Part shown: positions 8,445 to 46,232 of the stretch, one piece after another
Layout: each line of letters begins with the position of its first letter
Numbering within the stretch: position 1 is the stretch's first letter
Source: Chelativorans alearensis
GTDB lineage: Bacteria > Pseudomonadota > Alphaproteobacteria > Rhizobiales > Rhizobiaceae
Direction of reading: 5' to 3'
NCBI RefSeq assembly: GCF_010993735.1
Contig: NZ_WQNI01000012.1
Coordinates: forward strand, 62,001 to 126,000
Length of the DNA: 64,000 nt
Program-made: the position numbers and the translations under genes
The notes under the pieces: generated by a model
What the model was told of the DNA's origin: nothing
Database searches by the model: none
What the model saw: the letters and a program-made list of their open reading frames with translations, nothing else

Positions 8445-8447
8445 TTG

Positions 8448-30164: not shown

Positions 30165-30314
30165 CGTGGCCCTTCGCGCCGCGCCACGAGAAAGCGCCCA
30201 GCATGGCACGTTTGGACCGATTGCGGGCGATAGCGGCTCTGTCGCGCTGGCTACCCAACGCCCTACACCAGAGCCGCATCCAAGTGCAACTCAACTCCAC
30301 GAAGGAATATCGCG

Positions 30315-31385: not shown

Positions 31386-31426
31386 GGCGCCGCATCCCTT
31401 CGGCGCAACTCGGGAAGGCAAACGCG

Positions 31427-31990: not shown

Positions 31991-32182
31991 GCTAATGGTC
32001 CGGTCATCGGTCGCCACGGAGACGGGATGCCCCGCGCCCGGGAGCCGCGCCAAACGGATACCCGATCACTGACCGCCCGTTCGGACCCAAGACCCGGGTG
32101 GTTCCCCACTTCGCGCGTGAAGGGCGTGCGGAGGTGGCAGTTCCTTCCCTTCGCCAAAGACGGAAAGACAAGGAAAACGACC

Positions 32183-33238
32183 ATGAAGAAGACATTGGCA
32201 ATCGCCGCGATCACCGCGGCCACCACGCTTGCCGGGCCCTTCGCCCCTGCGCAGGCGGAGCAACCGGCCCTCGTCCTGTACGAAACCAAGGGCCAGCAGA
32301 CGATCCGCCAGGAGGGCATCGCGTTCGTCGAACTCGACCCGGACGCGCCGGACTATGGGCAGATTCTCGCCCAGATGCCGCTGCCGCCTAACCTGATCTC
32401 GCATCACATCTTCTACAATCCCGCGCGCGACCGAGCCTACCTCACCTCGCTTGGCCGTTCCGAACTGCGGGTTCTCGACGTGACAAGCTTCCCGTTCCGG
32501 ACCAAGGTCGTACCGGTTCCCGGCTGCGATGAGGTGCTCGATACGATCGCAATGCCCGTGCCTTATCCGCACGGCATCACCGTTCATGACGGCATCGACC
32601 GGATGCTTGTGACCAGCACCATCAACCCGAAGGACCCCACGGATCTCGGCGAGTCGATCGTGGTTATCCAGCCGAGCACCGGCAAGGTGCTGTCAACGCA
32701 CAAGGTCTCCGACAAGCCGTCGCCGTCGGGCACGGCGCCCGTCGAGGCGTTTTTCGTCCCGGGAGTCGAGCCGCCGGTCGCCTACATCACCAACATGGCC
32801 GAGGGCCGCATCTGGATCGCCGAGTGGCAGCCGGAATCGAAGACGTTCTCGTTCCGCGGCGATTTCGACTTCGCCGCGACCGGTCAGGGCATGGCGCTCG
32901 AGGTCTATTTCAATGCAGCGGGCGACCGGGCCTACGTGACCACGGCGCTGCCGGGGCATCTCAACGCCTTCGACATCTCCGATCCACGTGCGCCCAGGCA
33001 CCTCTACGCGGTCGAGGCGGCGGGCGGCGCCCACCACCTGGTGTTCTCGCCCGACGGCAACCGCGCCTATGTGCAGAACAGCCTGATCAACATCCCGGGC
33101 ATGAACGACGGCTCGATTTCCGTGATCGATCTGGTGGCAGGCAAGAAGCTCGGCACCATCGACACATTCAAGGACGCGGGTCTGACGATCAACACGATCA
33201 TGCTGACGCCCGAGGCAGAGGACTTTCACGCCCACTGA
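32183..33238 (+). CDS. Periplasmic seven-bladed beta-propeller (YncE/lactonase-like)
   Basis: This 351-residue protein starts at ATG 32183 with AAGGAAAACG upstream. A cleavable signal peptide (KKTLAIAAITAATTLAGPF, cleavage near AQAEQ) is followed by repeated four-stranded blades: ISHHIFYNPARDRAYLTSLG, YPHGITVHDGIDRMLVTSTI, GMALEVYFNAAGDRAYVTTA and HHLVFSPDGNRAYVQNSLIN. The repeats have the (F/L)SPDG..(A/L)YV pattern of YncE/40-residue YVTN proteins. It may bind or hydrolyse a ligand in the periplasm; no catalytic residues are clear. A G+C-rich inverted repeat after the stop (33247-33275) without a T-run may slow transcription. Confidence 0.85.
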   Translation: MKKTLAIAAITAATTLAGPFAPAQAEQPALVLYETKGQQTIRQEGIAFVELDPDAPDYGQILAQMPLPPNLISHHIFYNPARDRAYLTSLGRSELRVLDVTSFPFRTKVVPVPGCDEVLDTIAMPVPYPHGITVHDGIDRMLVTSTINPKDPTDLGESIVVIQPSTGKVLSTHKVSDKPSPSGTAPVEAFFVPGVEPPVAYITNMAEGRIWIAEWQPESKTFSFRGDFDFAATGQGMALEVYFNAAGDRAYVTTALPGHLNAFDISDPRAPRHLYAVEAAGGAHHLVFSPDGNRAYVQNSLINIPGMNDGSISVIDLVAGKKLGTIDTFKDAGLTINTIMLTPEAEDFHAH

Positions 33239-33289
33239 CGCCACCGCTGCCGGCGGGGCCATGGGCTCCGCCGGTGCGAGACACCCAGT

Positions 33290-33406
33290 GACGCGGTCGC
33301 CGACGCGGTCGCCCAGGCCGCCTCATATCCACACCACTGGAGCACCGTGATCAACGGCAGGCAGATCGACTTCGAAACCTTCAAGACCGAATTCGGCGGC
33401 GACTGA
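33290..33406 (+). pseudogene. C-terminal fragment of an unidentified protein
   Basis: The frame reads VAQAASYPHHWSTVINGRQI and ends DFETFKTEFGGD-TGA. The text is protein-like with low-complexity-free codon use, but no start exists and I cannot name the family. It directly abuts a MATE fragment, so both are debris. Confidence 0.4.
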
Positions 33407-33573
33407 CCGTCATCGGCATCGCTACTGTCGCGGAGGTTGGTGTCTTTCTCGCCGCAACGATCTACGCAGCATCCTTGAGCGTAGCCGATGTCGCGGCCCA
33501 CACACTTGCACTGCGGGCGGCCGGTGTCGCCTATGCCATATCTGCAGCAATGCTTCAGGCTTCAATGGTCCTG
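33406..33573 (+). pseudogene. MATE-family efflux pump fragment
   Basis: About 55 codons (VIGIATVAEVGVFLAATIYA, then VADVAAHTLALRAAGVAYAI, SAAMLQASMV) match the middle of MATE/NorM multidrug exporters by eye. There is neither start nor stop of the original gene. The homology ends where unrelated sequence leading to dispersed repeat 1 begins. Confidence 0.65.
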
Positions 33574-33770
33574 TTGGCTGGCTGCGATACCATCAGGTGC
33601 CAACTACCAACGGAAATACCACCCCTCCGCCTCGTTGGATCAAGTTCGCTCGAGCCTGCTGAAACGCGCCCAATCGCGCCGAAAGTACCTGAAAATCAAG
33701 TGAATTCAGACACTTGCTTGGATTTCTGCGTAGAAGCTTCGGTGGAAGGGAATGTCGGGAGAAGAGGGGA

Positions 33771-33882
33771 TGGTGCCAGGGACGGCAAAGGCTTACGCCC
33801 TGGTGGGAAACCCGGAACGCCTCGTTGTATTTCGTAGCTTTTTGCCTGCGTCTTTCCCACTTCTGGCTTTCTGCTTCAGGCC
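33771..33882 (+). repeat. Dispersed repeat 1, copy A, preceded by tRNA 3'-end-like sequence
   Basis: TGGTGCCAGGGACGG (33771-33785) resembles the complement of a tRNA 3' end. It is followed by AAAGGCTTACGCC and about 95 bases (TGGTGGGAAACCCGG, then GCCTCGTTGTATTTCGTAGC and onward to CTGCTTCAGGC) that recur at 44170 and 60403 in the same orientation. On the minus strand all copies encode AESQKWERRRQKATKYNEAF, but no complete gene contains it. Confidence 0.85.
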
Positions 33883-34030
33883 ACGAGATACCGGTCTCGT
33901 CCTCAAGCGCAATGGACATGGCGCTTTTGGCCGCGCCGGGAGTTTGGCACACGAGCACAATGTCGGCGAGCCAACGGCCGTCGCAGGCACCATGGTATCT
34001 GCACAGGGACACGATGCTGCGCCAGCACAT
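33883..34030 (-). pseudogene. Probable fragment of error-prone DNA polymerase DnaE2
   Basis: On the minus strand the frame reads ADIVLVCQTPGAAKSAMSIA followed by LEDETGIS. This resembles the OB-fold segment of DnaE2 (LVLVRQRPGTAKGVMFxTLEDETG). It is cut at the repeat-1 boundary. There is no start, no stop and only about 50 codons. Confidence 0.5.
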
Positions 34031-34080
34031 AAGGTGCAATCTCATGCGCCCATTGACTTGCAGGTTTGTTTCAGTCATGT

Positions 34081-34109
34081 AGTAAAGCGGTTTACTAAAC
34101 CGCTTTACT
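34081..34109. promoter_or_regulatory. Perfect 29-bp palindrome, operator of the LacI regulator
   Basis: Arms AGTAAAGCGGTTTA and TAAACCGCTTTACT are exact complements around one central C. Each arm also contains a LacI-type half-palindrome (TAAA-GCGG-TTTA and TAAA-CCGC-TTTA). It ends seven bases before the start of the LacI gene, so binding would block its own transcription and perhaps that of the operon behind it. Confidence 0.8.
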
Positions 34110-34116
34110 AAGTGAA

Positions 34117-35160
34117 ATGGCAATGGTGCAACCGAGCAAGCCCAGTCTGAAGAATGTGGCGCAGCGAGCGGAGGTTTCCGTCGCAACGGTATCCCGGATG
34201 CTGAATGGTTCGCTCGAGTTGCCGGATCAAACCCGGCAGCGGATCGAAGACGCCATTCGCGCGCTGAACTATCAGCCAAATCCCCACGCAAGGCGGCTCA
34301 GCCGCGGGCGTTCCGACACGATCGGCCTTGTTGTCCCCGACATTGCCAACCCCTTCTTCGCGATGCTGGTCGCCGCAGTAGAGGAGGCCGCGGACGAGCA
34401 GAAGCTGGCCTTGTCGCTCTACGCCACGCTCAACCGCCAGGGCCGGGAAGTGGCATATCTCGAATTGATCGAGCGCAACCATGTGGACGGTCTGATCTTC
34501 ATCACCAACCACCCTGACGACGGGAGTCTGGGAGACCTGATCAATCGCACGGGCAATGTGGTTGTCGTGGATGAAGACGTGCCAAATGCGCATGCGCCGA
34601 AGCTCTTCTGCGATAACGAGCAGGGTGGCCGCCTTGCAGGGGAACTGCTTGCCGAAAACGGTCACAGGAATGTGTTGTTTGTTGGCGGACCAGACCAAAT
34701 GATCAGCGCGCGCAGGCGCTACAAGGGACTCGCGGATTCGCTCAGCAATCATTTCAGGACCGAGATCCGGCCGCAGCGCTACGAGGGGGACTACACCGAG
34801 GCGTTCGGCCGTGAGGCGGCGCAGCGCTACATTGCGGAAGGCGCAGTTCCCACCGCCATATTCGCGAGTTCGGACGAAATAGCGATCGGTCTGATTGAGG
34901 TTCTGCGCGCCCAGGGCATATCCATTCCCGGAGACGTGTCGATCATCGGCTTCGACGATGTCGGGCCGCTCCACCTGTTTGCGCCGCCCTTGACCGCAAT
35001 ACGGCAGCCCGTCCGCTCCATCGGACGGCGCGCCCTGTCGCTACTCACCGAGACCGACTGGAAGACACGGGGCAATGTGCCCTCAGAAGAACTGCTTCCG
35101 GTCGAAATCGTCGTACGGGAATCCGTTGCCCCGTGCGCGAAACCCCAACCGCAGCGGTAA
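34117..35160 (+). CDS. LacI-family transcriptional regulator
   Basis: This 347-residue regulator has the LacI headpiece (SLKNVAQRAEVSVATVSRML at 9-28) and hinge helix (ALNYQPNPHARRLSRGRSDT). A type-1 periplasmic-binding-like sensor follows (GLVVPDIANPFFAMLVAAVE, FASSDEIAIGLIEVLRAQGI, IIGFDDVGPLHLFAPPLTAI). It is 19 bp upstream of the sugar-type ABC importer genes and is the evident local regulator. The inducer is presumably the transported compound or a breakdown product. Confidence 0.93.
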   Translation: MAMVQPSKPSLKNVAQRAEVSVATVSRMLNGSLELPDQTRQRIEDAIRALNYQPNPHARRLSRGRSDTIGLVVPDIANPFFAMLVAAVEEAADEQKLALSLYATLNRQGREVAYLELIERNHVDGLIFITNHPDDGSLGDLINRTGNVVVVDEDVPNAHAPKLFCDNEQGGRLAGELLAENGHRNVLFVGGPDQMISARRRYKGLADSLSNHFRTEIRPQRYEGDYTEAFGREAAQRYIAEGAVPTAIFASSDEIAIGLIEVLRAQGISIPGDVSIIGFDDVGPLHLFAPPLTAIRQPVRSIGRRALSLLTETDWKTRGNVPSEELLPVEIVVRESVAPCAKPQPQR

Positions 35161-35179
35161 ACCGAAAGAGGAGAACTCC

Positions 35180-36142
35180 ATGAACACGAAATTCACCCTC
35201 AGAAGACGCATGCTTTCTCTCGGGCTGGGCGCGGCCCTGACCCTGCCGCTCGGCATGGCCATCGCGAAAGCGCAGGATGAAAAGACCTTCGCCCTTGTCC
35301 AGATCAATCAGCAGGCGCTGTTCTTCAACCAGATGAACGAGGGCGCGCAGAAGGCGGCCGACGAGGCCGGCGTGAACCTGGTCATCTTCAACGCCAACAA
35401 CGACCCGGCGGCACAGAACAGCGCCATCGAGACCTACATCCAGCAGGGCGTTGACGGTCTGGCCGTGGTGGCAATCGACGTGAACGGCATCATGCCGGCG
35501 GTGAACCAGGCGGCCGAAGCCGGCATTCCCGTCGTGGCGATCGACGCGATCCTCCCGGATGACGGTCCGCAGAAGGCACAGATTGGCGTCGACAACGGCG
35601 CGGCGGGTGCCGACATGGCTACCTATTTCCTCGACTACGCAAAGGCCAATATGGGCGGCAAGGCCAAATACGGCGTTGTCGGTGCGCTCAACTCCTACAT
35701 CCAGAACGTTCGCCAGAAAGGCTTCGAGGACGTCGTCGATGCTGCCGACGGTATCGAGAAGGCTGGCGTCGTCGATGGCCAGAACATCCAGGACAATGCG
35801 CTCTCGGCCGCCGAGAACCTGATCACCGGCAATCCCGACATGAACGCGATCTATGCAACAGGCGAGCCGGCGCTGATGGGCGCAATCGCCGCCGTCGAAA
35901 GCCAGGGCAAGCAGGAAGACGTGAAGATCTTCGGCTGGGATCTGACCGCGCAGGCGATTGCCGGCATCGACGCGGGCTATGTCACCGCGGTGATCCAACA
36001 GGATCCGGCCGCGATGGGTGCCGCGGCAGTCGAAGCGCTCAACACGCTGGCCGGCGGCGGCGAGGTGGACAAGACCATCTCCGTGCCAGTGACCATCGTG
36101 ACCAAGGAGAATGTCGACCCCTACAGGGCGATCTTCCAGTGA
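35180..36142 (+). CDS. Sugar-type ABC importer substrate-binding protein (CUT2/RbsB-like)
   Basis: This 320-residue protein starts at ATG 35180 with GAGGAGAAC before it. The signal peptide (RRRMLSLGLGAALTLPLGMA, cleavage near AKAQDEK) is followed by a type-1 periplasmic-binding fold: FALVQINQQALFFNQMNEGA, IQQGVDGLAVVAIDVNGIMP and IYATGEPALMGAIAAVESQG. It delivers the ligand to the permease/ATPase encoded downstream with a 4-bp overlap. CUT2 proteins bind pentoses, inositols, autoinducer-2 and other polyols. The ligand cannot be deduced. Confidence 0.92.
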   Translation: MNTKFTLRRRMLSLGLGAALTLPLGMAIAKAQDEKTFALVQINQQALFFNQMNEGAQKAADEAGVNLVIFNANNDPAAQNSAIETYIQQGVDGLAVVAIDVNGIMPAVNQAAEAGIPVVAIDAILPDDGPQKAQIGVDNGAAGADMATYFLDYAKANMGGKAKYGVVGALNSYIQNVRQKGFEDVVDAADGIEKAGVVDGQNIQDNALSAAENLITGNPDMNAIYATGEPALMGAIAAVESQGKQEDVKIFGWDLTAQAIAGIDAGYVTAVIQQDPAAMGAAAVEALNTLAGGGEVDKTISVPVTIVTKENVDPYRAIFQ

Positions 36143-36960
36143 TGTCGGACAGACAGCAGGAAAACGCTGTCGCTGTCGGTTCCGGACGGGTCAACCCCGC
36201 CCGGAACGGCACGGCCAACGGCGGGCGGGTCCCGCGTATCGCTCTCAGGGACATACGCAAGAACTTCGGATCGCTCCAGGCATTGCGCGGCGTCGATCTG
36301 GACATCTATCCGGGAGAATGCCTGGGGCTGGTCGGCGACAACGCGGCCGGCAAATCGACGCTCACGAAAATCATCTCGGGAACCTATATTCCCGACGACG
36401 GAACGATGCATCTCGATGGCGAGCCGGTGCGCTTCAGCGGTCCGGCGGATGCCCGGCGACGCAACATCGAAATGGTGTTCCAGGATTTGAGCCTGTGCGA
36501 TCACATCGACGTGGCCGGCAACCTGTTTCTCGGTCGGGAGGTCACCAAGGGGCCGTTTCTCGACCGCAAGACGATGCTGTCGGAAGCGCGTAAGATGCTC
36601 GATGCGCTGGAGATCCGCATCCCCCGCCTGACCGGCAAGGTTGCGCAGCTCTCCGGCGGCCAGCGGCAGGCCATCGCCATTGCCCGCGCCGCTTCCTTCG
36701 ATCCCAAGGTGCTGATCATGGACGAGCCGACCTCGGCGCTCGCCGTGGCGGAGGTCGAGGCGGTCCTGTCGCTGATCAACCGCGTCAAGGCGACGGGGGT
36801 TTCCGTCATTCTCATCACGCACCGCCTGCAGGATCTGTTTCGCGTCTGCGACCGGATTGCCGTCATGTATGAGGGCACCAAGGTGGCGGAACGCTCGATC
36901 GCCGAAACCGATCTCGAGGATCTCGTCAAACTCATCGTCGGCGAAAAGGACGAAAGATGA
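36139..36960 (+). CDS. Sugar-type ABC importer ATPase, single nucleotide-binding domain
   Basis: This 273-residue protein has Walker A GDNAAGKST (about 74-82), signature LSGGQRQAIAIARA, Walker B VLIMDEPTSALAV and H-loop LITHRLQDLF. Unlike RbsA it has one ATPase domain, as in the FrcA group of rhizobia. The N-terminal 30 residues are polar and outside the fold. It overlaps both neighbours by 4 bp (ATGA), so translation of the importer genes is coupled. Confidence 0.93.
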   Translation: MMSDRQQENAVAVGSGRVNPARNGTANGGRVPRIALRDIRKNFGSLQALRGVDLDIYPGECLGLVGDNAAGKSTLTKIISGTYIPDDGTMHLDGEPVRFSGPADARRRNIEMVFQDLSLCDHIDVAGNLFLGREVTKGPFLDRKTMLSEARKMLDALEIRIPRLTGKVAQLSGGQRQAIAIARAASFDPKVLIMDEPTSALAVAEVEAVLSLINRVKATGVSVILITHRLQDLFRVCDRIAVMYEGTKVAERSIAETDLEDLVKLIVGEKDER

Positions 36961-37967
36961 CCGCCTATACCGAACGAGGCCAGGGCTCCCCATGGGCAGA
37001 CTTCCTGTCGGAACAGGCCCAGGTACTCTCGATCGCTTTCTTCTTCCTGGTCTGCGTCGTGTTTTTCGCGGTGACGACCGACACCTTCATGACGCTCGGC
37101 AACCAGTTGAACGTGATCCGGCAGGCAGCACCCATCCTCATTGTCGCCGTGGCCATGACATTCGTCATCATCACCGGCGGCATCGACCTTTCGGTCGGCT
37201 CGCAGGTGGCGCTGGTGAATGCCGTTGCCGCCATTACGCTCGCTGCGGGGCTGCCCTGGCCCGTGGTCGTCGTGGCGATGCTGTGTTTCGGCGCGCTGAT
37301 CGGTCTCGGCCAGGGCTGGTTCGTCGCCTATCAGGGCATACCGGCCTTCATCGTCACGCTTGCCGGACTGTCCATGCTGCGGGGCATCGCGCTCTACCTG
37401 ACGCAGGGCTATTCGATTCCCATCAAGGGCGTGCCGGGCTTCTTCGCCCTCGGGCGTGGCGAACTCTTCGGCATCCCCGTGCCGGCTCTTATCGCGATCG
37501 CCGTTGCCATACTGGGCTATGTGGTGATCACCTCCACCCGCTATGGGCGCCAGGTGGTCGCGGTGGGCTCCAACATGGAGGCGGCGCGCCGCGTCGGCAT
37601 GCCGGCCCGCTGGGCAATTGCTTCGGTCTATGTGGTGGCCGGCGTCGCATCTGCCTTGGCCGGTCTCCTGATCGCCGCGCGCCTGGGGTCCGGTTCGTCC
37701 AATGCGGCCGTCGGCTTCGAGCTTCAGGTGATCGCTGCCGTCGTGCTTGGCGGAACCTCGCTGATGGGCGGGCGGGGCACCATCGTCGGGACCATTCTCG
37801 GCACGCTCACCATTGCGGTGATCGGCAACGGGCTGATCCTGATGCACATCTCGCCGTTCTTCACGCAGATCGTCACCGGTGCGATCATCCTGATCGCCAT
37901 CTGGCTGAACACGCGCATCTTCACGGCCAATTTCCGCTTCGGATTCGCAAGGGGAAACAGGCCATGA
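36957..37967 (+). CDS. Sugar-type ABC importer permease (RbsC-like)
   Basis: This 336-residue membrane protein has about ten hydrophobic segments and the RbsC-family block TGGIDLSVGSQVALVNAVAA (about 79-98). The loop TSTRYGRQVVAVGSNMEAAR and AAVVLGGTSLMGGRGTIVGT near the end complete the CUT2 pattern. It overlaps the next gene, the phosphotriesterase-like hydrolase, by 4 bp, which ties transport to catabolism. Confidence 0.93.
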   Translation: MTAYTERGQGSPWADFLSEQAQVLSIAFFFLVCVVFFAVTTDTFMTLGNQLNVIRQAAPILIVAVAMTFVIITGGIDLSVGSQVALVNAVAAITLAAGLPWPVVVVAMLCFGALIGLGQGWFVAYQGIPAFIVTLAGLSMLRGIALYLTQGYSIPIKGVPGFFALGRGELFGIPVPALIAIAVAILGYVVITSTRYGRQVVAVGSNMEAARRVGMPARWAIASVYVVAGVASALAGLLIAARLGSGSSNAAVGFELQVIAAVVLGGTSLMGGRGTIVGTILGTLTIAVIGNGLILMHISPFFTQIVTGAIILIAIWLNTRIFTANFRFGFARGNRP

Positions 37968-39028
37968 CCGACGAGCGTTCTGAAGCCCATGTGGGGTCCG
38001 GAAAGGTAATGACGGTGGCCGGCGACATCCCGGTCGAAAGGCTCGGCATCACGCTGATGCACGAGCACATCCTGAACGACTGCCGGTGCTGGTGGAACGA
38101 GCCCAAGGAACCGGAGCGTCGCTATCTGGCCGACCAACCGGTCAGCATCGAGATACTCTCGGAACTGCGCCAGGATCCATTCGTCAACAAGCACAATATC
38201 GCGCTGGACGACGAGACGCTGGCGATCGAGGAACTGCTTCGGTTCGCAGAGGCGGGCGGGCATACGGTCGTGGACCCAACCTGCCGCGGCATTGGGCGCG
38301 ATCCGCTTGCCTTGCAGCGGATATCGGCGGCGACCGGCCTTCAGATCGTGATGGGGGCGGGCTATTACCTGCAATCCTCGCATCCGCCGGAGGTTGCCGG
38401 CATGTCGGCGGACGATATCGCAGACCAGATCGTCGGTGAGGCGCTGGAGGGCGTCGACGGAACCGGAGTGCGCATCGGTCTCATCGGCGAGATCGGCGTT
38501 TCGTCCGATTTCACCGGCGACGAGGAGACATCCCTGCGCGGTGCCGCGCGGGCTCAAGTGCGCACCGGCCTGCCGCTGATGGTGCATCTGCCAGGCTGGT
38601 TCCGGCTTGGCCACAAGGTGCTCGATATCGCCGCGGAGGAGGGCGCGGATCTGCGCCACACGGTGCTTTGCCACATGAACCCCTCGCACGACGACCTCGC
38701 CTATCAGAGCGAATTGGCGGCGCGCGGCGCCTTCATCGAGTACGACATGATCGGCATGGATTTCTTCTATGCGGATCAGCAGGTGCAGTGCCCGAGCGAT
38801 GAAGAAGTGGCGCGCGCCATCGTCCGGCTGATCGAGGCGGGACATCTCGACCGCATCCTGCTGTCGCATGACGTGTTCCTGAAAATGATGCTGACCCGCT
38901 ACGGCGGCAATGGCTACGCCTTCGTGCTGCGCCATTTCCTGCCCCGGCTCATGCGCCATGGCGTCGACAAGGCGGCGCTGGAAACGCTGATGCGCGGCAA
39001 TCCGATGCGTGTCTTTCACGCCGGCTGA
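37964..39028 (+). CDS. Phosphotriesterase-family metal hydrolase (Php-like)
   Basis: This 354-residue amidohydrolase-superfamily protein has the binuclear-site ligands in order: MHEHILND (HxH), GEIGVSSDF (Glu as bridging ligand, instead of the carboxylated Lys of true phosphotriesterase), MVHLPGW, LCHMNPSHDD and LLSHDVF (final Asp). Glu at the bridge is the Php/lactonase-like type, so lactone hydrolysis is more likely than phosphotriester cleavage. The start ATG 37964 overlaps the permease stop (ATGA). A cytoplasmic enzyme, it would open a lactone derived from the imported compound (inference). Confidence 0.88.
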   Translation: MTDERSEAHVGSGKVMTVAGDIPVERLGITLMHEHILNDCRCWWNEPKEPERRYLADQPVSIEILSELRQDPFVNKHNIALDDETLAIEELLRFAEAGGHTVVDPTCRGIGRDPLALQRISAATGLQIVMGAGYYLQSSHPPEVAGMSADDIADQIVGEALEGVDGTGVRIGLIGEIGVSSDFTGDEETSLRGAARAQVRTGLPLMVHLPGWFRLGHKVLDIAAEEGADLRHTVLCHMNPSHDDLAYQSELAARGAFIEYDMIGMDFFYADQQVQCPSDEEVARAIVRLIEAGHLDRILLSHDVFLKMMLTRYGGNGYAFVLRHFLPRLMRHGVDKAALETLMRGNPMRVFHAG

Positions 39029-39064
39029 GGCTGGCCCATTCCTGGGAAAAAAAGAGAAAATGCA

Positions 39065-39841
39065 ATGACGAAAAAAGTGCTTCTCGTGGGCGAAAGCTGG
39101 TTCAGTTCGGCGACCCATTTCAAGGGCTTCGACCAGTTTGGAAGCGTAACCTTTCACCTGGGCGCCGAACCACTGGTGAAGGCGCTGGAAGGCAGCGAAT
39201 ATGAGCTTACCTACATGCCGGCGCACGAGGCGGTGGAGAAATTCCCATTCGAGATGAGTGGCCTCGACGCTTACGACGCCATCATCCTGTCGGACATCGG
39301 CGCCAATTCGCTCCTCCTGCCGCCGGCCGTCTGGCTTCACTCACGCACAGTCCCGAACCGTCTGAAACTCATCCGCAGCTGGGTCGAAAAGGGCGGCAGC
39401 CTGTTGATGGTGGGCGGCTACTTCTCGTTCCAGGGCATCGACGGCAAGGCACGCTGGCGGCGCACGCCGGTCGAGGATGTGCTGCCGGTGACCTGTCTTC
39501 CCTATGACGACCGCTTGGAAATCCCCGAAGGAACGGTTCCCGACATCGTGCTTTCCAATCACGCTACCATTGCGGGCCTGGAGGGCGAGTGGCCGGTGCT
39601 GCTCGGCGTCAACGAAGTGGAACTGCGTGACCGCGACGATGTCGAGCTTGTCGCTCGGCTGCCGGAGGACCAGGGCGGGCATCCGCTGCTCGTCACCGGC
39701 CGCTACGGCAAGGGGCGCTCTGCGGTCTGGACCTCCGACATCGGCCCGCACTGGCTATCGCCCGCCTTCTGCGAATGGAAAGGCTACGGCATTCTCTGGA
39801 AGAATATCCTGGGCTGGCTCACGGAAACGGCCGGGCGCTAA
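39065..39841 (+). CDS. ThuA/GATase1-like protein of unknown function
   Basis: This 258-residue cytoplasmic protein starts KKVLLVGESWFSSATHFKGF. Segments IILSDIGANSLLLP, SWVEKGGSLLMVGGYFSFQG and RYGKGRSAVWTSDIGPHWLS belong to the glutamine-amidotransferase-like/ThuA fold, but the catalytic Cys-His pair of amidotransferases is not evident. ThuA relatives act on sugars or in trehalose catabolism in rhizobia. It follows the hydrolase by 36 bp and is convergent (20-bp gap) with the PfkB kinase gene. Function unknown. Confidence 0.8.
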   Translation: MTKKVLLVGESWFSSATHFKGFDQFGSVTFHLGAEPLVKALEGSEYELTYMPAHEAVEKFPFEMSGLDAYDAIILSDIGANSLLLPPAVWLHSRTVPNRLKLIRSWVEKGGSLLMVGGYFSFQGIDGKARWRRTPVEDVLPVTCLPYDDRLEIPEGTVPDIVLSNHATIAGLEGEWPVLLGVNEVELRDRDDVELVARLPEDQGGHPLLVTGRYGKGRSAVWTSDIGPHWLSPAFCEWKGYGILWKNILGWLTETAGR

Positions 39842-39861
39842 TGAGCGCCGGTCGACCGGTC

Positions 39862-40761
39862 TCAGCCGGCGGCGAGGATGGCTCGCAACTCGCCGGCGGA
39901 GGGAAACGCCGAATGCGTGCCGCGGCGGCTGACGGTGATTGCCGCGGCCTTGCCGGCGTCGCTGATCGCGCGCCGGTCGAGCGTCGTTGCGCGCAGGACG
40001 GCCGAAGCAAGCGCCACGGCCATGAATGTGTCACCGGCCCCGGTCGTATCCACCACGTCGCATTCCATGCCCGGCACATGCAGAGCGCTTTCCGCATCCA
40101 CCAGAAGCGCGCCATTCGCGCCAAGCGTTACCACGACGCTGCGCACGCCTTGGGCGATCAGCCGCCTGGCGGCCTTGGCGTCGTCGTCGGCGGTCAGTGC
40201 CCGTGCTTCGCCCTGGTTGAGGAAGGCAATGTCGATGAGCGGCCACAGCCCGCCGAAATAAGGCCTGAGCGGCGACGGATTGATTGCCGTCGTCATGCCC
40301 TTTTCGCGCGCCGCCCCGAGCGTTGCGGTTGCGGTCTCCTCGCTAAGATTGCCCTGCAGGATCGCAATATCCCCGGCGGCGGCCTCGTTCAGCCCGGCAT
40401 GCACCTTGGCGGCACTCAAATGGCTGGCGCAGTCGGTGGTGGTGACGATAGCGTTCTCCCCGTCCGGTGTGGTGAGGATCGTCGAGAAATCGCTGGCACG
40501 GCCGTCGAGCTGGATCAAATGGCAGGCAACGGGCTCGTAGCTGAGCTGCTCGCGGATCGTGGCGGCGCGGAAATCATCTCCGATGGCCGCCACGAGCGTT
40601 GTCGGCACGCCGCAGCGCGCCATGACGATCGCCTGGTTGCAGCCTTTGCCGCCCAGGCCCCGCCCCGTCTGCGCGCCGAGGATCGAAGCGCCAGGCTGCG
40701 GCCAGTCGTCGATGGCGATGGTTTCGTCGACGGTGACATTGCCGATCACAAACGCCTGCAT
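39862..40761 (-). CDS. PfkB-family carbohydrate kinase (ribokinase-like)
   Basis: This 299-residue kinase has the N-terminal motif GRGLGGKGCNQAIVMARCGV (about 34-53) and the C-terminal signature DVVDTTGAGDTFMAVALASA with the catalytic Asp (about 242-261). It phosphorylates a sugar or nucleoside-like alcohol with ATP. It stands alone on the minus strand inside a plus-strand cluster, convergent with the ThuA-like gene (20 bp) and divergent from the BtpA gene with only 25 bp between starts. The plus-strand promoter for BtpA-TenA must therefore overlap the pfkB 5' region. Confidence 0.92.
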   Translation of the reverse strand: MQAFVIGNVTVDETIAIDDWPQPGASILGAQTGRGLGGKGCNQAIVMARCGVPTTLVAAIGDDFRAATIREQLSYEPVACHLIQLDGRASDFSTILTTPDGENAIVTTTDCASHLSAAKVHAGLNEAAAGDIAILQGNLSEETATATLGAAREKGMTTAINPSPLRPYFGGLWPLIDIAFLNQGEARALTADDDAKAARRLIAQGVRSVVVTLGANGALLVDAESALHVPGMECDVVDTTGAGDTFMAVALASAVLRATTLDRRAISDAGKAAAITVSRRGTHSAFPSAGELRAILAAG

Positions 40762-40786
40762 AACGTGCTTTCAAAAGGGTGACACA

Positions 40787-41629
40787 ATGACACAGATAGC
40801 GAATACGTCCTCAAACGCCATAAGAGACATATTCGGGACTGGCAAGGTTCTGATCGGGATGATCCATTGCCCTGCCTTTCCCGGTGCGCCCCGCTATGCC
40901 GGCGGCGGCACGGACGCGATCTATGATGCCTGCATGCGCGACGCAGAGGCGCTGGTCGAGGGCGGCATGCATGGCCTGGTGATCGAGAACCATGGTGATA
41001 TCCCGTTCTCGAAACCGGAGGATATCGGGCATGAAACAGCGGCCTTCATGTCCGTCGTGACAGATCGAATCAATCGCGCTTTCAGCGTGCCGCTCGGTGT
41101 GAATGTCCTGGCCAATGCCCCGATCCCGGCCTTTGCAATCGCCATGGCGGGCAGCGCCAAGTTCATCCGGGTAAACCAGTGGGCCAACGCCTATGTCGCC
41201 AATGAAGGATTCATGGAAGGCCGCGCGGCCGAGGCGATGCGCTATCGCTCGCTCCTGCGGGCCGAGCACGTCAAGGTCTTTGCCGACAGCCACGTGAAGC
41301 ATGGCAGCCACGCCATCGTTGCCGACCGTTCGATCACGGAACTGACACGCGATCTCGCCTTCTTCGATGCGGATGTCGTCATCGCCACCGGTCAGCGGAC
41401 CGGGAATACGGCCACCATCGAGGAAATCGATGAGATTGGTTCGGCCACGGATTTGCCGGTGCTGGTCGGTTCGGGCGTGACCAGGGACAACATTGCCGAG
41501 ATCCTCAAGCGCACAAGCGGTGTCATCGTCGCATCTTCTCTCAAGGAAGGTGGAGTCTGGTGGAACCCGGTGGATGTCGAGCGGGTGCGCATTTTCCGAG
41601 CGGCAGCCGAGCCCGCGCTGGAGGCCTGA
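40787..41629 (+). CDS. BtpA/SgcQ-family protein
   Basis: This 280-residue TIM-barrel-like protein starts at ATG 40787 with AAAAGGG upstream. Family text: LIGMIHCPAFPGAPRY, EALVEGGMHGLVIENHGDIP, LGVNVLANAPIPAFAIAMAG, KFIRVNQWANAYVANEGFME and LVGSGVTRDNIAEILKRTSG. SgcQ belongs to a poorly understood E. coli sugar operon, and BtpA was linked to photosystem I assembly; the enzymatic reaction is not established. Its place next to a kinase, a lactonase-like hydrolase and a TenA protein makes it part of a catabolic route. It is 3 bp before the next gene. Confidence 0.9.
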   Translation: MTQIANTSSNAIRDIFGTGKVLIGMIHCPAFPGAPRYAGGGTDAIYDACMRDAEALVEGGMHGLVIENHGDIPFSKPEDIGHETAAFMSVVTDRINRAFSVPLGVNVLANAPIPAFAIAMAGSAKFIRVNQWANAYVANEGFMEGRAAEAMRYRSLLRAEHVKVFADSHVKHGSHAIVADRSITELTRDLAFFDADVVIATGQRTGNTATIEEIDEIGSATDLPVLVGSGVTRDNIAEILKRTSGVIVASSLKEGGVWWNPVDVERVRIFRAAAEPALEA

Positions 41630-41632
41630 CGC

Positions 41633-42289
41633 GTGGCTGCCGAAACGCTCAGCGGGCAGATGCTGCGCGAGAATGCTGCGGTATTCGAGGCGATGGTCAA
41701 CCACCGCTTCGTGCGGGAAATCGAGCAGGATCGTTTGGATGCACGGGTCTTCGATCGCTACCTCGTCTACGAGGGCGCATTCGTGGAGACGGCCATTTCA
41801 ATCTTCGCCTACGCGGCGGCGAAGGCGGAAACGATCGCGCAGAAACGTTGGCTGATTGCTGTTCTGGACGTGCTGGCAAACCAGCAAATCGCATATTTCG
41901 AGCGAACCTTTACCGCGCGCGGCATCGATCCGTCCTGCCATATCCCGAACTGGTCCGAGACGGAAGCATTTCGCGCGGGCATGCTCGATATAGCCCGAAA
42001 GGGCACGTTTCTGGACATCGTGGCGGCGATGTTCGCGGCCGAATGGATGTACTGGACATGGTCGAAACGCGCCGCCGTGACCGCGATATCGGACCCGCTT
42101 GTGCGGGAATGGGTGGAGATGCACGCAAACGAGACCTTTGCCGCTCAGGCCCTTTGGCTCAAAGCGCAACTGGATGAGGCGGGCGAGACGCTGCTTCCTG
42201 CGGAACGATCCCGGTTGAGCGGGATCTTCGGCGGTGTGCAACGGCTCGAAATCGCCTTTCACGATGCGCCATACGACAGGAGCAAATAA
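41633..42289 (+). CDS. TenA/PqqC-superfamily protein without active-site cysteine
   Basis: This 218-residue all-helical protein starts at GTG three bases after BtpA. TenA-like helices: HRFVREIEQDRLDARVFDRY, LVYEGAFVETAISIFAYAAA and MFAAEWMYWTWSKRA. In TenA_C the last of these would carry the catalytic Cys; here Ala-Glu-Trp resembles the TenA_E class, which lacks it. TenA_E proteins act on formyl-aminopyrimidine in thiamin salvage together with an M20-type deformylase, and an M20 gene follows here. That pairing is suggestive only, because the transporter is of sugar type. Confidence 0.82.
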   Translation: MAAETLSGQMLRENAAVFEAMVNHRFVREIEQDRLDARVFDRYLVYEGAFVETAISIFAYAAAKAETIAQKRWLIAVLDVLANQQIAYFERTFTARGIDPSCHIPNWSETEAFRAGMLDIARKGTFLDIVAAMFAAEWMYWTWSKRAAVTAISDPLVREWVEMHANETFAAQALWLKAQLDEAGETLLPAERSRLSGIFGGVQRLEIAFHDAPYDRSK

Positions 42290-42309
42290 TCCCATGCAGG
42301 TGGAGATCA

Positions 42310-43131
42310 ATGCGCTTGCTCGAGCGCATCGACGAATTCGCGCGCATCGGAGCAACGCCGGCTGGCGTGAACCGCCAAGCGCTTTCGGGAGAGGATCGTC
42401 AGGCGCGTTGCCTGTTGGCCAGCTATGCCAAGGCGTGCGGATTTCGTGTGTTCCAGGATCCGATGGCCAACCTCTTCGTGCGCCATGAAGGGCGTTCTCC
42501 CGAACGCGCCCCTTTCCTGATTGGAAGCCACCTGGACAGCCAGCCGACCGGAGGCCGGTTCGATGGGGCTCTGGGAGTCCTTGCCGCGTTCGAGGTGATG
42601 GAGAGCCTTGAGGATGCGCGGGTGGAAACCGATCTGCCCGTGGAAGTCGTTGCCTGGACAAACGAAGAAGGCAGCCGCTTCGCCCGGAACCATGGGGTCC
42701 ATGGCGTTTTCCCTGGAGCATATACCGCCGGAGGGGAATGGTTTGTGTGGGACGGCGCATCCTTTGCCGACGAAGTGAACGCGACGCTAGATGCACTGAA
42801 GGGCGTCGAAATGCGCAGCTCGGCTTTCCGATCTCAGGCTATCTGGAACTCCACATCAAGCAGGGACCGGCGCTCGAACGCGAGGGAATCCCGATCGGCA
42901 TCGTCCATGGGATTCAGGGCACACGATGGCTTGAGGTTGTCCTGAGGGGGCAGGCCGCGCATGCCGACACCACGGCGCTCGCCTTTCGCCGCGACCCGAT
43001 GGTCGCCGCCACGGTCGCGCTCGACAGGTTGTACGAGAGCACAATACCGGAGGACGAGCATGCTCGCTTTACGGTCGGGCGCTTCGGCCTCGAGCCGGGA
43101 TCGATCAACGCCATTCCGGAAACGGTGACGG
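42310..43131 (+). pseudogene. M20-family amidohydrolase (hydantoinase/carbamoylase type), frameshifted and cut
   Basis: Metal motifs are intact: LIGSHLDSQPTGGRFDGALG (HxD and Asp) and WTNEEGSRFARNHGVHGVFP (Glu-Glu). At about 42815-42830 the frame shifts by one base and continues as LGFPISGYLELHIKQGPALE, IPIGIVHGIQGTRWLEVVLR and AAHADTTALAFRRDPMVAAT to NAIPETV at 43128. There the sequence changes directly into a VOC protein, and about 100 C-terminal residues are missing. Related enzymes hydrolyse carbamoyl, ureido or formyl groups (allantoate, N-carbamoyl amino acids, formyl-aminopyrimidine). Confidence 0.88.
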
Positions 43132-43555
43132 GTGCCGATCGAGGATTACCGCTATGATGGCGAGCCCTACGAGGTCCACAACTCCGTCGCGCTGGCCAAC
43201 AGCGGCCCCCATGCAAGTCGAGTTGATCCAGATACGCAACGACGCTCCCTCCATGTACTGCGACTTCGTGCGTGCCGGGCACAAGGGGCTGCAGCATATT
43301 GCCTATTGGACGCAGGACTACGATGCCGACCTTGCCCGCATGGAAGCGGAAGGCTTCAGGCAGAAGATGAGCGGCAAGGTCGGCGCCAATGGCCGCTTCG
43401 TCTATTTCGACCGGGAAGCCCATCCCGGCACTGTCATCGAACTCTCCGAGGTCGTAGGGCCGAAGGGGCGGCTGTTCGATCTGATCCGCGAATCTTCCGA
43501 AGGCTGGGATGGCGCGGAGCCGGTCCGCCCTTTCCGCGACCTGTCCACCTTGTGA
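43132..43555 (+). pseudogene. VOC-family (glyoxalase fold) protein, N-terminally truncated and frameshifted
   Basis: The text begins mid-protein (PIEDYRYDGEPYEVHNSVAL) exactly at the M20 break. A single extra C in the run GGCCCCC at about 43205-43211 shifts the frame. It then reads MQVELIQIRNDAPSMYCDFV, GHKGLQHIAYWTQDYDADLA and HPGTVIELSEVVGPKGRLFD to a TGA at 43553. The His and Glu positions of VOC metal sites are visible (HIAYW, VIELSE). The first 40 or so residues are lost, probably in the deletion that also took the end of the M20 gene. It lies 7 bp upstream of the RuBisCO-like gene. Confidence 0.85.
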
Positions 43556-43562
43556 GGCGCCG

Positions 43563-44156
43563 ATGAAGGCCGGGACGCTGGAAGCGCAATACCTGATCGA
43601 GACTCCGTTCGAGCCTGAGAAGGTGGCGGCGATCATGGCCGGCGAGCAGAGCAGCGGAACGTTCGTTCGCGTGGCGGGCGAGACGGATGCGCTGCGTGAG
43701 CGCGCCGCAGCCGAGATCCTGTCCGTGGAGGAACTGGAGCCCGTGACCGCGCGCAGCCTCGCAAGCGCCTATCTGCAGCGCAAGGGCCGCCGGCCCTGCG
43801 GGCGAGCGTGAAGGTCGCCTTTCCGCTCGCCAATATGGGCGCCAACCTGACCACCCTGGCCGCGACGGTGGCCGGTAAATCTCTATGATCTCGGCGAGGT
43901 TACCGGCCTGCGTCTGGTGGCATCGCTCTCCCGCGGACCTATCGCGACCGCTTCGACCGCCCGCCTCTCGGCGTTTCGGGAACGCGCCATTGGCTCGGCA
44001 TCGGCGACCCGTCGTTCTTCGGCACGATCATCAAGCCCAATGTCGGCATGGCCGCATCGGAGATTGCGGATCTCGTGGGCCTGCTTTGCGAGGTGGGGGT
44101 CGACTTCATCAAGGACGACGAGGTTTGCGCCGATCCGGATCATGCACCGCTTGCCG
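43563..44156 (+). pseudogene. RuBisCO-like protein (form IV type), three frameshifts and C-terminal loss
   Basis: From ATG 43563 the frame reads TLEAQYLIETPFEPEKVAAI and continues to about residue 80. The homology then moves frame to ASVKVAFPLANMGANLTTLA, shifts again near 43875, and once more near 43925 to DRFDRPPLGVSGTRHWLGIG. The motifs GTIIKPNVG and VGVDFIKDDE correspond to RuBisCO loops with the catalytic Lys and the carbamylated-Lys region. It breaks at about 44156 after some 200 of about 410 residues, inside an inverted duplication. Characterised RuBisCO-like proteins act in methionine salvage or in branched-sugar-acid (isoapionate) degradation. Confidence 0.88.
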
Positions 44157-44173
44157 AGCGGTGCATGATCCGG
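44135..44173. repeat. Perfect 17-bp inverted repeat at the RuBisCO-like gene break
   Basis: CCGGATCATGCACCGCT (44135-44151), loop TGCCG, then its exact complement (44157-44173). The left arm and loop are ordinary RuBisCO-like coding sequence (DPDHAPLAE). The right arm is not expected there and leads straight into repeat 1. Confidence 0.92.
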
Positions 44174-44283
44174 AACGCCTCGTTGTATTTTGTAGCTTTT
44201 TGCCTGCGTCTTTCCCACTTTCGGCTTTCTGCTTCAGGCGAGCGCCGGTCTGAATGATTCGGCCGAAGCTCAAATTGATTAAA
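44170..44283 (+). repeat. Dispersed repeat 1, copy B
   Basis: It starts CCGGAACGCCTCG and matches copies at 33810 and 60430 through GCTTCAGGC. With the 60-kb copy it shares about 45 more bases (AGCGCCGGTCTGAATGAT, GGCCGAAGCTCA, ATT-ATTAA). The 5' part present in the other copies (tRNA-like end and AAAGGCTTACGCC) is missing, replaced by the inverted duplication of the RuBisCO-like gene. Confidence 0.88.
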
Positions 44284-44313
44284 CTCGCCGCCTGCTGTGC
44301 GCGTCGCGATGGA

Positions 44314-44538
44314 ATGAAAGACCTATGTGGGCGAGTCACGCCAGAATCCGTCTTTGCCGAGACATCTCGAAATGTCGCGTTTGGGGCCGTCACCAGCGTC
44401 AAAAGGCTCGAGACAGGGGAGACGATCGTCCAGGTGACCTGGCTCGACAAGAACGAGAACTGCTTCGAGATCGAAGCAGTGAGGAAAGTCCACCAGCCGA
44501 CGCACGTACCAAATGACGAAAGGGCGCCGAAATTGTGA
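44314..44538 (+). CDS. Hypothetical 74-residue protein
   Basis: From ATG 44314 the frame reads MKDLCGRVTPESVFAETSRN, then VTSVKRLETGETIVQVTWLD, and ends VPNDERAPKL. The frame is also open upstream to ATG 44254 inside repeat 1, but that stretch is repeat sequence. The alternating hydrophobic pattern suggests a small beta-rich (SH3-like) protein. The family is not recognised and no operon partner is seen. Confidence 0.45.
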   Translation: MKDLCGRVTPESVFAETSRNVAFGAVTSVKRLETGETIVQVTWLDKNENCFEIEAVRKVHQPTHVPNDERAPKL

Positions 44539-44609
44539 GAGAGCTGCATCGGATATTCCGTCGGGCACCGGTTTGCTGTCAGGTACAACAGGAAGGACAA
44601 ACATCTGTG

Positions 44610-44696
44610 ATGATGCGCTCGTCCTGCGCAATCGCGGCAGTCGTTGCGGCATTCATGGTGCTCGCCAGTTGCCAGACCGCGCCGAAGTGCTCGTGA
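44610..44696 (+). pseudogene. Small lipoprotein, probably frameshifted
   Basis: ATG 44610 (or 44613) after AAGGACAAACATCTG opens a 28-residue lipoprotein signal, MMRSSCAIAAVVAAFMVLAS followed by CQTAP, with lipobox LASC. It stops at 44694 just after the mature Cys. One frame over the text continues EVLVTPNNTVECY to a TAG at 44722-44724, which looks like the true end. Either a real frameshift or a very short lipopeptide. Confidence 0.4.
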
Positions 44697-44899
44697 CGCC
44701 GAACAACACCGTCGAGTGCTATTAGCGTTTTGGAAGGTAGGCGCAAATCAGCACCATGCCGAGCGTGTAAGTAGGTCATTGGATGCCCCGAGGGTCAGCA
44801 AAGTTCGCGAGTGCGACCTCCGTGACAGATTCTGCACCGTCCGCTTTTGGGGAACGTCGAAGCCGGCTCTATGGCTGGATTGGAGGCGCACTACGGTCA

Positions 44900-45055
44900 T
44901 TGCAACGCTGACAATGTCGGTCTCCGACGGGTCAACAGTGCCGGTTGCCGGAGCGAGCACGCTGCTTTTTCCCCAAGGATGCGATTCCGAGTGAGAAAGA
45001 GCAAAAAATTCAATGATTTCAACATGTTATAATGCATGGTGCCCAGGGGCGGAAT
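44900..45055 (+). repeat. Dispersed repeat 2, copy 1, ending in a tRNA-Phe-like 3' end
   Basis: About 156 bases starting TTGCAACGCTGACAA match 60230-60389 in the same orientation at roughly 80% by eye (shared blocks include AGTGCCGGTTGC and GATTCCG-GTGAGAAAGA). The 3' end is the tRNA-like sequence described separately. The block precedes repeat 3 by 60 bp. Confidence 0.85.
45037..45055 (-). other. tRNA-Phe-like 3' end (19 nt), possible attachment site
   Basis: On the minus strand ATTCCGCCCCTGGGCACCA reads as the T-arm 3' strand CCGCC, acceptor strand CCTGGGC, discriminator A and CCA of an alphaproteobacterial tRNA-Phe. The rest of the tRNA is absent. Tyrosine integrases commonly use this part of tRNA genes as att core, so this is a candidate att remnant. 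Related pieces are at 60367-60389 and, weaker, 33771-33785. Confidence 0.6.
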
Positions 45056-45114
45056 ATAAGAATAGAAAATTTTGCTTCTTTTCCAAGTAGTTGGAGGCTG
45101 ATCGTTGGAATCTG

Positions 45115-45229
45115 AACCAACAGAAATACCAACAAAATATTTCTGTGGATTGGTTCGGTTCCCGCATATACTTCAATCGGCTTGATCGTACCGCATTGGC
45201 GCAAGGCTTCAACCTGCTTTTTGGGCCGT
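45115..45229 (+). repeat. Dispersed repeat 3, copy 2, with conserved hairpin
   Basis: Same orientation as 27185-27304. The arms AACCAA/TTGGTT and CAGAAATA/TATTTCTG and the 9-base loop are identical to copy 1; the bulge reads TGGA instead of TGTA. The following 45 bases (CGGTTCCCGCATATACTTC, AATCGGCTT) are also identical, and then similarity fades. Confidence 0.85.
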
Positions 45230-45340
45230 TTGCGGAATGTCGGGTCTCGGTCGACCCTTTCCGGTAAGCTGACGTTCCGAAACGACCCCGTTCAAGCCAT
45301 TCGCATCATGCAAGGTGTCGCCGAAAGCGGACCCTTTCGC

Positions 45341-46153: not shown

Positions 46154-46201
46154 TGCTACGCTCCCTTGCGCATTTACATATTGGAGCGTTCTTCCTACGG
46201 T

Positions 46202-46223
46202 CTGACAGCACTGTCAGAGTCAA
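46202..46223 (-). promoter_or_regulatory. MerR-type promoter/operator
   Basis: CTGACAGCACTGTCAG (46202-46217) is a perfect palindrome. On the minus strand it directly follows a TTGAC -35 box (complement of 46219-46223). A TAGGAA -10-like element is spaced by about 20 bp, the stretched spacing that MerR activators correct. It would drive the aminotransferase gene. Confidence 0.65.
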
Positions 46224-46232
46224 GGGCTTCGA

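What the first reader, a model, noticed from the sequence alone, without database searches (positions are those of the whole stretch)
34117..44156. Candidate undescribed catabolic pathway: ABC importer, lactonase-like, ThuA-like, PfkB, BtpA/SgcQ, TenA-like, M20, VOC, RuBisCO-like
Genes of at least three protein families with no settled reaction (BtpA/SgcQ, a ThuA-like protein, a cysteine-less TenA) stand together with a CUT2 importer, a Glu-bridged phosphotriesterase homologue, a sugar kinase and a RuBisCO-like protein. Start/stop overlaps link importer to hydrolase, and BtpA to TenA is 3 bp. Seen: the genes and their coupling. Family knowledge: TenA_E plus M20 deformylase form a thiamin-pyrimidine salvage pair, while RuBisCO-like proteins and lactonases serve branched-sugar-acid routes. 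Inference: an imported sugar-like compound, possibly an N-glycoside or a thiamin/nucleoside relative, is phosphorylated, ring-opened and split. I know of no described pathway with this set.
Basis: partly seen in the sequence, partly recalled or inferred. Interest (0 to 1): 0.85.

Follow-up and report, generated by a model that had tools for sequence, protein, structure and literature searches.

The report
Undescribed sugar-amide catabolic operon, partly decayed
A block of nine genes that probably imports and breaks down some unidentified sugar-containing compound is kept together in many soil and plant-associated bacteria, and it puts four enzyme families of uncertain function into one testable pathway.

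Summary
The core observation holds; the edges do not. A LacI regulator, a ribose-type ABC importer, a phosphotriesterase-family (PTER-like) hydrolase, a PF07090 protein, a ribokinase-like PfkB, BtpA and a Glu-type TenA form one unit: 78 of 80 loci found with TenA hold all nine genes, the other two lying on short contigs. A LacI operator precedes the regulator in 77 of those 78 and occurs nowhere else in this genome at up to one mismatch. The VOC and RuBisCO-like genes do not belong: VOC is in none of the 80 loci, and window 43129-44164 is a 92% identical piece of a separate RuBisCO-like operon joined to a truncated M20 pseudogene. The kinase is antisense, embedded between PF07090 and BtpA. I found no described pathway; the nearest print is the Salmonella rikA locus, also of unknown substrate (PMC13432705). 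Best reading: an imported sugar-containing amide or amine is hydrolysed, phosphorylated, then split by BtpA, whose model resembles TrpF and HisA, with TenA or M20 handling nitrogen. That chemistry is inference. New variant of a known kind; interest 0.6.

The parts
34081..34109 (.). Overlapping pair of LacI operators AGTAAANCGNTTTACT (34081-34096 and 34094-34109), a 29-bp near-perfect palindrome
   Evidence: at least one site before LacI in 77 of 78 complete loci, two in 72; only place in the 5.7 Mb genome at up to 1 mismatch
34117..35160 (+). LacI-family regulator
   Evidence: PF00356, Peripla_BP_3; 78 of 80 loci
35180..36142 (+). Ribose-type (CUT2) periplasmic binding protein
   Evidence: PF13407; best solved relative 5hsg 395 bits, next four (ribose- or sugar-binding proteins) 92-103 bits
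36139..36960 (+). Single-domain ABC ATPase, GTG start
   Evidence: PF00005; matches positions 5-242 of the 501-position RbsA model
36957..37967 (+). CUT2 permease
   Evidence: PF02653
37964..39028 (+). Phosphotriesterase-family metallohydrolase of the 3K2G/PTER type
   Evidence: PF02126; 609 bits to 3k2g; six metal-ligand positions invariant in 19 of 19
39065..39841 (+). PF07090 class-1-amidotransferase-like protein without Cys at the nucleophile elbow
   Evidence: PF07090 416 bits; relatives 3soz, 2gk3; elbow GGYFSFQG or GGYYSFQG in 101 of 101 proteins (elbow position recalled)
39862..40761 (-). PfkB (ribokinase-like) kinase, antisense and embedded in the unit
   Evidence: PF00294; ribokinase model 195 bits, below its cut-off of 300; 3i3y 246 bits
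40787..41629 (+). BtpA/SgcQ-family TIM-barrel protein
   Evidence: PF03437, TIGR00259 above cut-off; model pLDDT 86.5; first Foldseek rows TrpF, HisA, RPE, HisF
41633..42289 (+). TenA-family protein of the Glu (TenA_E) type, GTG start
   Evidence: PF03070; E137 invariant in 18 of 18; AEWMY motif in 94 of 94, preceded by Cys in 2, L154 and L168; model pLDDT 95
42310..43129 (+). Remnant of an M20 (hydantoinase/carbamoylase-type) hydrolase: frame change, 3' truncated
   Evidence: an intact relative, L024, scored
43129..44164 (+). NOT part of the unit: joined debris of another operon (5'-truncated VOC gene, start of a frameshifted RuBisCO-like gene)
   Evidence: 92% identical to L174 and L175 from 43129 on; PF00016 hit at G000:C4:105973-106164 = window 43973-44164

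Best explanation
One LacI-controlled catabolic unit for an imported sugar-containing amide or amine (an N-glycoside-like or acylated amino compound). Shown by sequence: a ribose-type importer, hydrolase-type proteins, a ribokinase-like kinase, BtpA and TenA encoded together, with a LacI operator in front. Inferred steps: (1) the CUT2 importer takes up the compound; (2) the PTER-like dimetal hydrolase, PF07090 and, where present, an M20 hydrolase open amide or acyl bonds of a conjugated form; (3) PfkB phosphorylates the sugar; (4) BtpA, a phosphate-binding TIM barrel resembling TrpF and HisA, cleaves or rearranges the phosphorylated sugar-nitrogen compound to a pentose-phosphate-like product; (5) TenA_E, or M20 in other lineages, hydrolyses the released nitrogen compound. 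It works like the pseudouridine (PsuK/PsuG) or fructoselysine (recalled) routes: phosphorylate first, split second. In this genome the M20 gene is lost. I put about 0.9 on one co-regulated unit and 0.25 to 0.3 on the chemistry as written.
For: All nine genes in 78 of 80 loci, the eight other than PfkB in one order in all 78. Operator. All 10 TenA places of at least 45% identity in 297 Hyphomicrobiales genomes (this genome included) lie within 5 kb of a BtpA of at least 57%, 9 of them within 100 bp; none of the 19 weaker TenA places does. A smaller set LacI-SBP-ATPase-permease-TenA-BtpA-PfkB without PTE, PF07090 or M20 in the 19 kb fetched suggests the core (L168). BtpA beside a sugar kinase also in Haloferax and Thermus. 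M20 proteins of three subfamilies stand in or beside the cluster in different lineages, pointing to an amide step. PTE nearest to 3K2G, the top structural match of PTER. BtpA model nearest to TrpF, HisA, RPE, HisF, ThiE. The SBP keeps two Phe, two Asp and a Gln at positions recalled as ribose contacts, but Asn13, Arg90, Asn190 and probably Arg141 are replaced.
Against: No substrate, activity or expression data. The TIM-barrel similarity is general (TMq 0.47-0.59, 10-18% identity over the 50 rows listed). RikA, the kinase of the related Salmonella locus, phosphorylates plain ribose, less well than RbsK. The TenA of the smaller cluster (L154/L168) has a Cys two residues before the Glu, which one search aligns with the Cys of P. 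furiosus TenA but one off that of H. pylori, so the Cys-less state is not universal here. Ten of 20 BtpA places of at least 55% have no such TenA nearby. Clusters without TenA, and one without PTE and PF07090, show that no full set of steps is obligatory. The role of PF07090 is not explained.
Confidence: 0.4

Rival explanations
1. A sugar-lactone or branched-sugar-acid route: the PTE opens a lactone and a RuBisCO-like protein splits the product.
For: Some PTE-family enzymes are lactonases (recalled); a RuBisCO-like fragment lies downstream.
Against: VOC is in none of the 80 loci and the RuBisCO-like pieces in none of the 117 searched; both come from a separate operon. Lactonase model 57.6 bits against cut-off 630; nearest solved relative 3K2G is the top structural match of PTER.
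Confidence: 0.1
2. Thiamin pyrimidine salvage: TenA_E and M20 process formylaminopyrimidine, the rest is incidental.
For: TenA fold and Glu motif; an M20 gene follows in 44 of 80.
Against: No Rfam match in 30000-48000; LacI operator; no thiamin gene other than TenA named in the annotated regions (gene tables incomplete); M20 type varies or is missing; TenA lies near BtpA. In a marine study strain E-37, expected to use FAMP, did not grow on it (PMC10470507, passages; whether its TenA is of this type was not tested).
Confidence: 0.07
3. Plain pentose utilisation: the kinase is a ribokinase and the hydrolases feed it ribose from various conjugates; BtpA and TenA are accessory or protective.
For: Ribose-type importer and kinase; RikA of the Salmonella locus supports growth on ribose.
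Against: Kinase scores below the ribokinase cut-off (195 against 300); SBP far closer to 5hsg than to ribose-binding proteins; PfkB, BtpA and TenA are what the smaller cluster keeps.
Confidence: 0.2
4. Two pathways sharing one importer: PTE-PF07090-M20 handles one compound, PfkB-BtpA-TenA another.
For: Streptomyces L180 has PTE-PF07090-M20-LacI with a DMT transporter and no BtpA or PfkB hit; L168 has the other half alone.
Against: The two halves stand together in 78 of 80 loci, with one operator site or pair in 77 of 78.
Confidence: 0.2

Closest known systems
Salmonella rikA-STM3548-STM3549-STM3550 locus (PMC13432705, passages and conclusions read)
   Same: PfkB kinase, a predicted glutamine amidotransferase and a phosphotriesterase together; its authors suggest a pathway for an unknown carbon source
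   Different: DMT transporter instead of a CUT2 importer; no BtpA, TenA or M20 in the four-gene set described; kinase shown to act on ribose
PTER, N-acetyltaurine hydrolase (PMC11374699, passages and one section read)
   Same: Its top structural match, 3K2G, is the nearest solved relative of the window protein (609 bits); a Glu among the metal-binding residues
   Different: Mammalian, no operon; activity of the bacterial protein untested
Pseudouridine catabolism PsuK/PsuG (abstract of PMC9247573)
   Same: A kinase phosphorylates, then a second enzyme splits the phosphorylated glycoside; PsuK is PfkB-like (recalled)
   Different: PsuG is unrelated to BtpA as far as recalled; substrate here unknown
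E. coli sgc operon with SgcQ (recalled)
   Same: BtpA/SgcQ-family protein in a sugar operon with a Zn peptidase
   Different: PTS import and an epimerase instead of the genes here
Noncontiguous operons (PMC7154746, passages read)
   Same: A gene on the opposite strand lies inside an operon
   Different: There co-transcription across the gene was reported; here only the arrangement is seen

Membership tests
BtpA/SgcQ family | PF03437 / TIGR00259 above curated cut-off | tested here: met
   231.6 and 220 bits against cut-offs 30 and 153.4
PTE superfamily, PTER-like | PF02126 and the dimetal ligand set with a Glu | tested here: met
   216.8 bits; H33 H35 E176 H208 H237 D303 invariant in 19 of 19 (ligand roles recalled)
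PTE superfamily, PTER-like | N-acyl amide hydrolase activity | not testable with these tools
   Needs an enzyme assay
PTE-like phospho-furanose lactonase | NCBIfam NF045706 above cut-off | tested here: not met
   57.6 bits against 630
Class 1 glutamine amidotransferase | Nucleophile Cys at the elbow | tested here: not met
   GGYFSFQG in 86 and GGYYSFQG in 15 of 101 proteins; no invariant Cys in 21 rows
ThuA family | ThuA profile match | tested here: not met
   Only PF07090 listed at E up to 0.01
TenA_E | TenA fold, Cys replaced, Glu in the motif | tested here: met
   Window: FAAEWMY, E137; TMq 0.84-0.90 to TenA structures in the first 27 rows. Two of 94 relatives (L154, L168, one genome) have MCAEWMY
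Thiamin pyrimidine salvage (TenA_E + M20) | Thiamin control or neighbours | tested here: not met
   No Rfam match at gathering scores in 30000-48000; no thiamin gene other than TenA named in seven annotated regions
RuBisCO-like branched-sugar-acid route | RuBisCO-like gene in the unit | tested here: not met
   RuBisCO-like pieces without a hit in 117 loci; VOC in none of 80; junction at 43129
sgc operon | PTS components with SgcQ | tested here: not met
   ABC importer instead
Ribokinase (equivalog) | TIGR02152 above cut-off | tested here: not met
   194.9 bits against 299.65; it may still phosphorylate ribose
Noncontiguous operon | Opposite-strand gene inside an operon, with transcription across it | tested here: inconclusive
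   Arrangement in 65 of 80 loci; gaps of median 20 and 25 bp in the 60 measured; no RNA data

The most novel reading that the evidence does not exclude
BtpA/SgcQ proteins are sugar-phosphate enzymes that cleave or rearrange phosphorylated N-glycosides, TrpF/HisA-like in fold, and with a PfkB kinase they form the core of a widespread, undescribed catabolic route. In it a TenA_E clade has left thiamin metabolism to process the released nitrogen compound, and a PTER-like amidohydrolase opens conjugated forms.
Probability: 0.25. Interest if true: 0.8.

Novelty: new variant of a known kind. Interest (0 to 1): 0.6.

Why it matters
Four families without a settled bacterial reaction, as far as I know (BtpA/SgcQ, PF07090, TenA_E outside thiamin metabolism, PTER-like PTE), are placed in one compact pathway with a binding protein that can be screened for its ligand. 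If right, alphaproteobacterial TenA_E genes should not be read as thiamin-salvage markers without checking for a BtpA neighbour, and the unknown pathway proposed for the Salmonella rikA locus gains a larger relative.

Tried and rejected
RuBisCO-like/VOC as pathway members: rejected. In one search my VOC query was out of frame past about 43211, so the VOC absence rests, not on 35. Thiamin control: no Rfam match. A LacI operator elsewhere in the 78 complete loci, the PfkB/BtpA start region included: no site at up to 2 mismatches. Solved structures by sequence for BtpA: nothing convincing (best E 0.017; I take the MHC rows as chance). E. coli genomes with DNA of the Pantoea-like cluster L165: no match. 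PF07090 in 197 genomes of the order of G467: 4 matches at E up to 1e-30, so I could not place 5hsg and 3i3y (Klebsiella by recall) in a cluster. Literature searches gave no description of this set, and 18, 58, 82 and 89 were on single parts; the library lacks most subscription papers.

Counts that cut against the reading: M20 next to TenA in only 44 of 80; PfkB co-directional after TenA in 15 of 80; 21 of 80 with neither. BtpA of at least 55% without a nearby TenA in 10 of 20 places (in one search at most 8 first-look candidates per genome were scored). Operator: one site only in 5 of 78, none in L100; four other sites in the genome at two mismatches, against 2 per strand for the reversed control pattern. 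Five of 80 loci were dropped from the gap measurement for failed start calls or short contigs.
Full report
What is there. The window lies in a 5.7 Mb genome (contig C4); the best named hits of the TenA search are Nitratireductor luteus and Chelativorans xinjiangense. ORF and family searches give LacI, a CUT2-type binding protein, a single-domain ATPase, a permease, a PTE-family protein, a PF07090 protein, PfkB on the minus strand, BtpA and TenA. Three joints from SBP to PTE overlap by 4 bp, and BtpA and TenA are 3 bp apart.

The unit is real. A search of genome contigs with TenA kept 80 of 113 relatives. All nine genes are present in 78 of 80, and the eight other than PfkB stand in one order in all 78; the other two, L091 and L099, lie on contigs of 7.5 and 4.6 kb. 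This set is chosen for TenA. A wider check used 297 Hyphomicrobiales genomes, this one included: all 10 TenA places of at least 45% identity lie within 5 kb of a BtpA of at least 57% identity, 9 of them within 100 bp and G496 at about 4 kb, and none of the 19 weaker TenA places does. BtpA of at least 55% occurs in 20 places, 10 of them with that TenA.

Regulation. Upstream of LacI stands an overlapping pair of 16-bp operators, together a 29-bp near-palindrome. At up to two mismatches at least one site precedes LacI in 77 of the 78 complete loci and two sites in 72; L100 has none, and no such site lies elsewhere in those loci. In the two named Pantoea clusters (L101, L102) and two unnamed relatives (L165, L167) the same motif stands between LacI and the ATPase gene. 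In the whole genome it is found at up to one mismatch only here; four other sites have two mismatches, and the reversed control pattern gives 2 per strand. So the regulon is probably this unit alone.

The embedded kinase. PfkB is antisense between PF07090 and BtpA in 65 of 80 loci and co-directional after TenA in 15. In the 60 antisense loci measured, the gap at its stop end has median 20 bp (-4 to 189) and the gap between its start and that of BtpA has median 25 bp (-23 to 57). This leaves little room for divergent promoters and resembles a noncontiguous operon (PMC7154746, passages). Transcription was not tested.

Variation tells the modules apart. After TenA, 44 of 80 loci have a hydantoinase/carbamoylase-type M20 gene. 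Two Pantoea clusters have an ArgE/DapE-type M20 beside PF07090, two Rhodobacterales loci (L099, L100) have one after TenA on the other strand, and Paracoccus aminophilus has an amidohydrolase-type M20 after BtpA and no TenA hit. Eight loci (L104, L105, L109-L112, L171, L172) have a cupin-domain protein, the importer, PTE, PF07090, co-directional PfkB, BtpA and M20, without a TenA hit. L168 has only LacI, importer, TenA, BtpA and PfkB. Streptomyces L180 has PTE, PF07090, M20 and LacI with a DMT transporter. Roseomonas L106 pairs LacI, PF07090, BtpA and PfkB with a dipeptide-type ABC importer. So PfkB-BtpA with TenA or M20 looks like the sugar half, and PTE-PF07090-M20 like a hydrolytic half.

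What does not belong. The window M20 is homologous to intact M20 in two frames, and its match to N. luteus DNA stops at 43129. N. luteus also has it in several frames, and the Chelativorans match ends just past TenA. From 43129 to 44164 the DNA is 92% identical to L174 and L175, other contigs of two congeners that hold a RuBisCO-like gene with the VOC gene. VOC hits none of the 80 loci; the RuBisCO-like pieces hit none of the 117 loci then held. A 70-nt repeat, 96% identical, stands at 33812 and 44170. The VOC and RuBisCO-like genes are thus broken ends of another operon.

Clues to the chemistry. The PTE gives 609 bits to 3k2g, the top structural match of PTER, which hydrolyses N-acetyltaurine. 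PF07090 lacks the amidotransferase Cys in 101 of 101 proteins. PfkB scores below the ribokinase cut-off. The binding protein resembles 5hsg far more than ribose-binding proteins and differs at several recalled ribose contacts. The BtpA model (pLDDT 86.5) is nearest to TrpF, HisA, RPE, HisF and ThiE, enzymes of phosphorylated compounds, of which TrpF and HisA rearrange N-phosphoribosyl amines (recalled); H27, N68, R128, R152, R181, D196 and K253 are invariant in 36 of 36. TenA has the Glu motif and a TenA fold, but 2 of 94 relatives, both from the genome of L168, have a Cys before it. From these I infer a phosphorylate-then-split route for a sugar-nitrogen compound. No step has been shown.

Print. 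The closest account is the Salmonella rikA locus: PfkB, predicted glutamine amidotransferase, DMT transporter and phosphotriesterase, with ribose kinase activity and a suggested pathway for an unknown substrate (PMC13432705; passages and conclusions). A paper on a cyanobacterial BtpA in tetrapyrrole synthesis was seen only as a citation. In a marine study a strain expected to use FAMP did not grow on it (PMC10470507, passages). My searches found no description of the unit studied here.

Verdict. A conserved unit that I could not find described, new variant of a known kind, with a decayed 3' end in this genome.

Noticed in passing
39862-40761 and 80 related loci: The kinase is antisense and embedded with small gaps in 65 of 80 loci, a possible conserved noncontiguous operon whose embedded gene seems to belong to the same pathway.
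   Followed up: partly
33812-33881 and 44170-44239: Two 70-nt direct repeats, 96% identical, flank the whole region; one lies where the RuBisCO-like fragment ends.
   Followed up: no
L117 (G000:C1:248000-265000), BtpA at 7994-8830: A second BtpA (34%) in the same genome stands near CUT2 permease genes, an SMP-30-like protein and an FGGY-like kinase (last two names from reading the translations).
   Followed up: partly
G000:C1:430219-430966: Another RuBisCO-like match in this genome is split into two pieces.
   Followed up: no
L115 (G006), TenA near 8848-9300: In a congener the TenA match comes in two pieces, so the unit may be decaying in this genus.
   Followed up: no
46237-46561: What looks like the start of a MerR-type regulator runs into an antisense piece of a mutator-type transposase (read by eye; names recalled).
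   Followed up: no
L102 13495-18490; L032, L082: A second CUT2 importer with an ArgE/DapE-type deacylase stands downstream in some loci; a second PF07090 hit is seen in L032 and L082.
   Followed up: partly
L154/L168 (genome G344): The TenA of the smallest cluster has MCAEWMY, a Cys beside the Glu motif, so it may bridge the Cys and Glu types.
   Followed up: no
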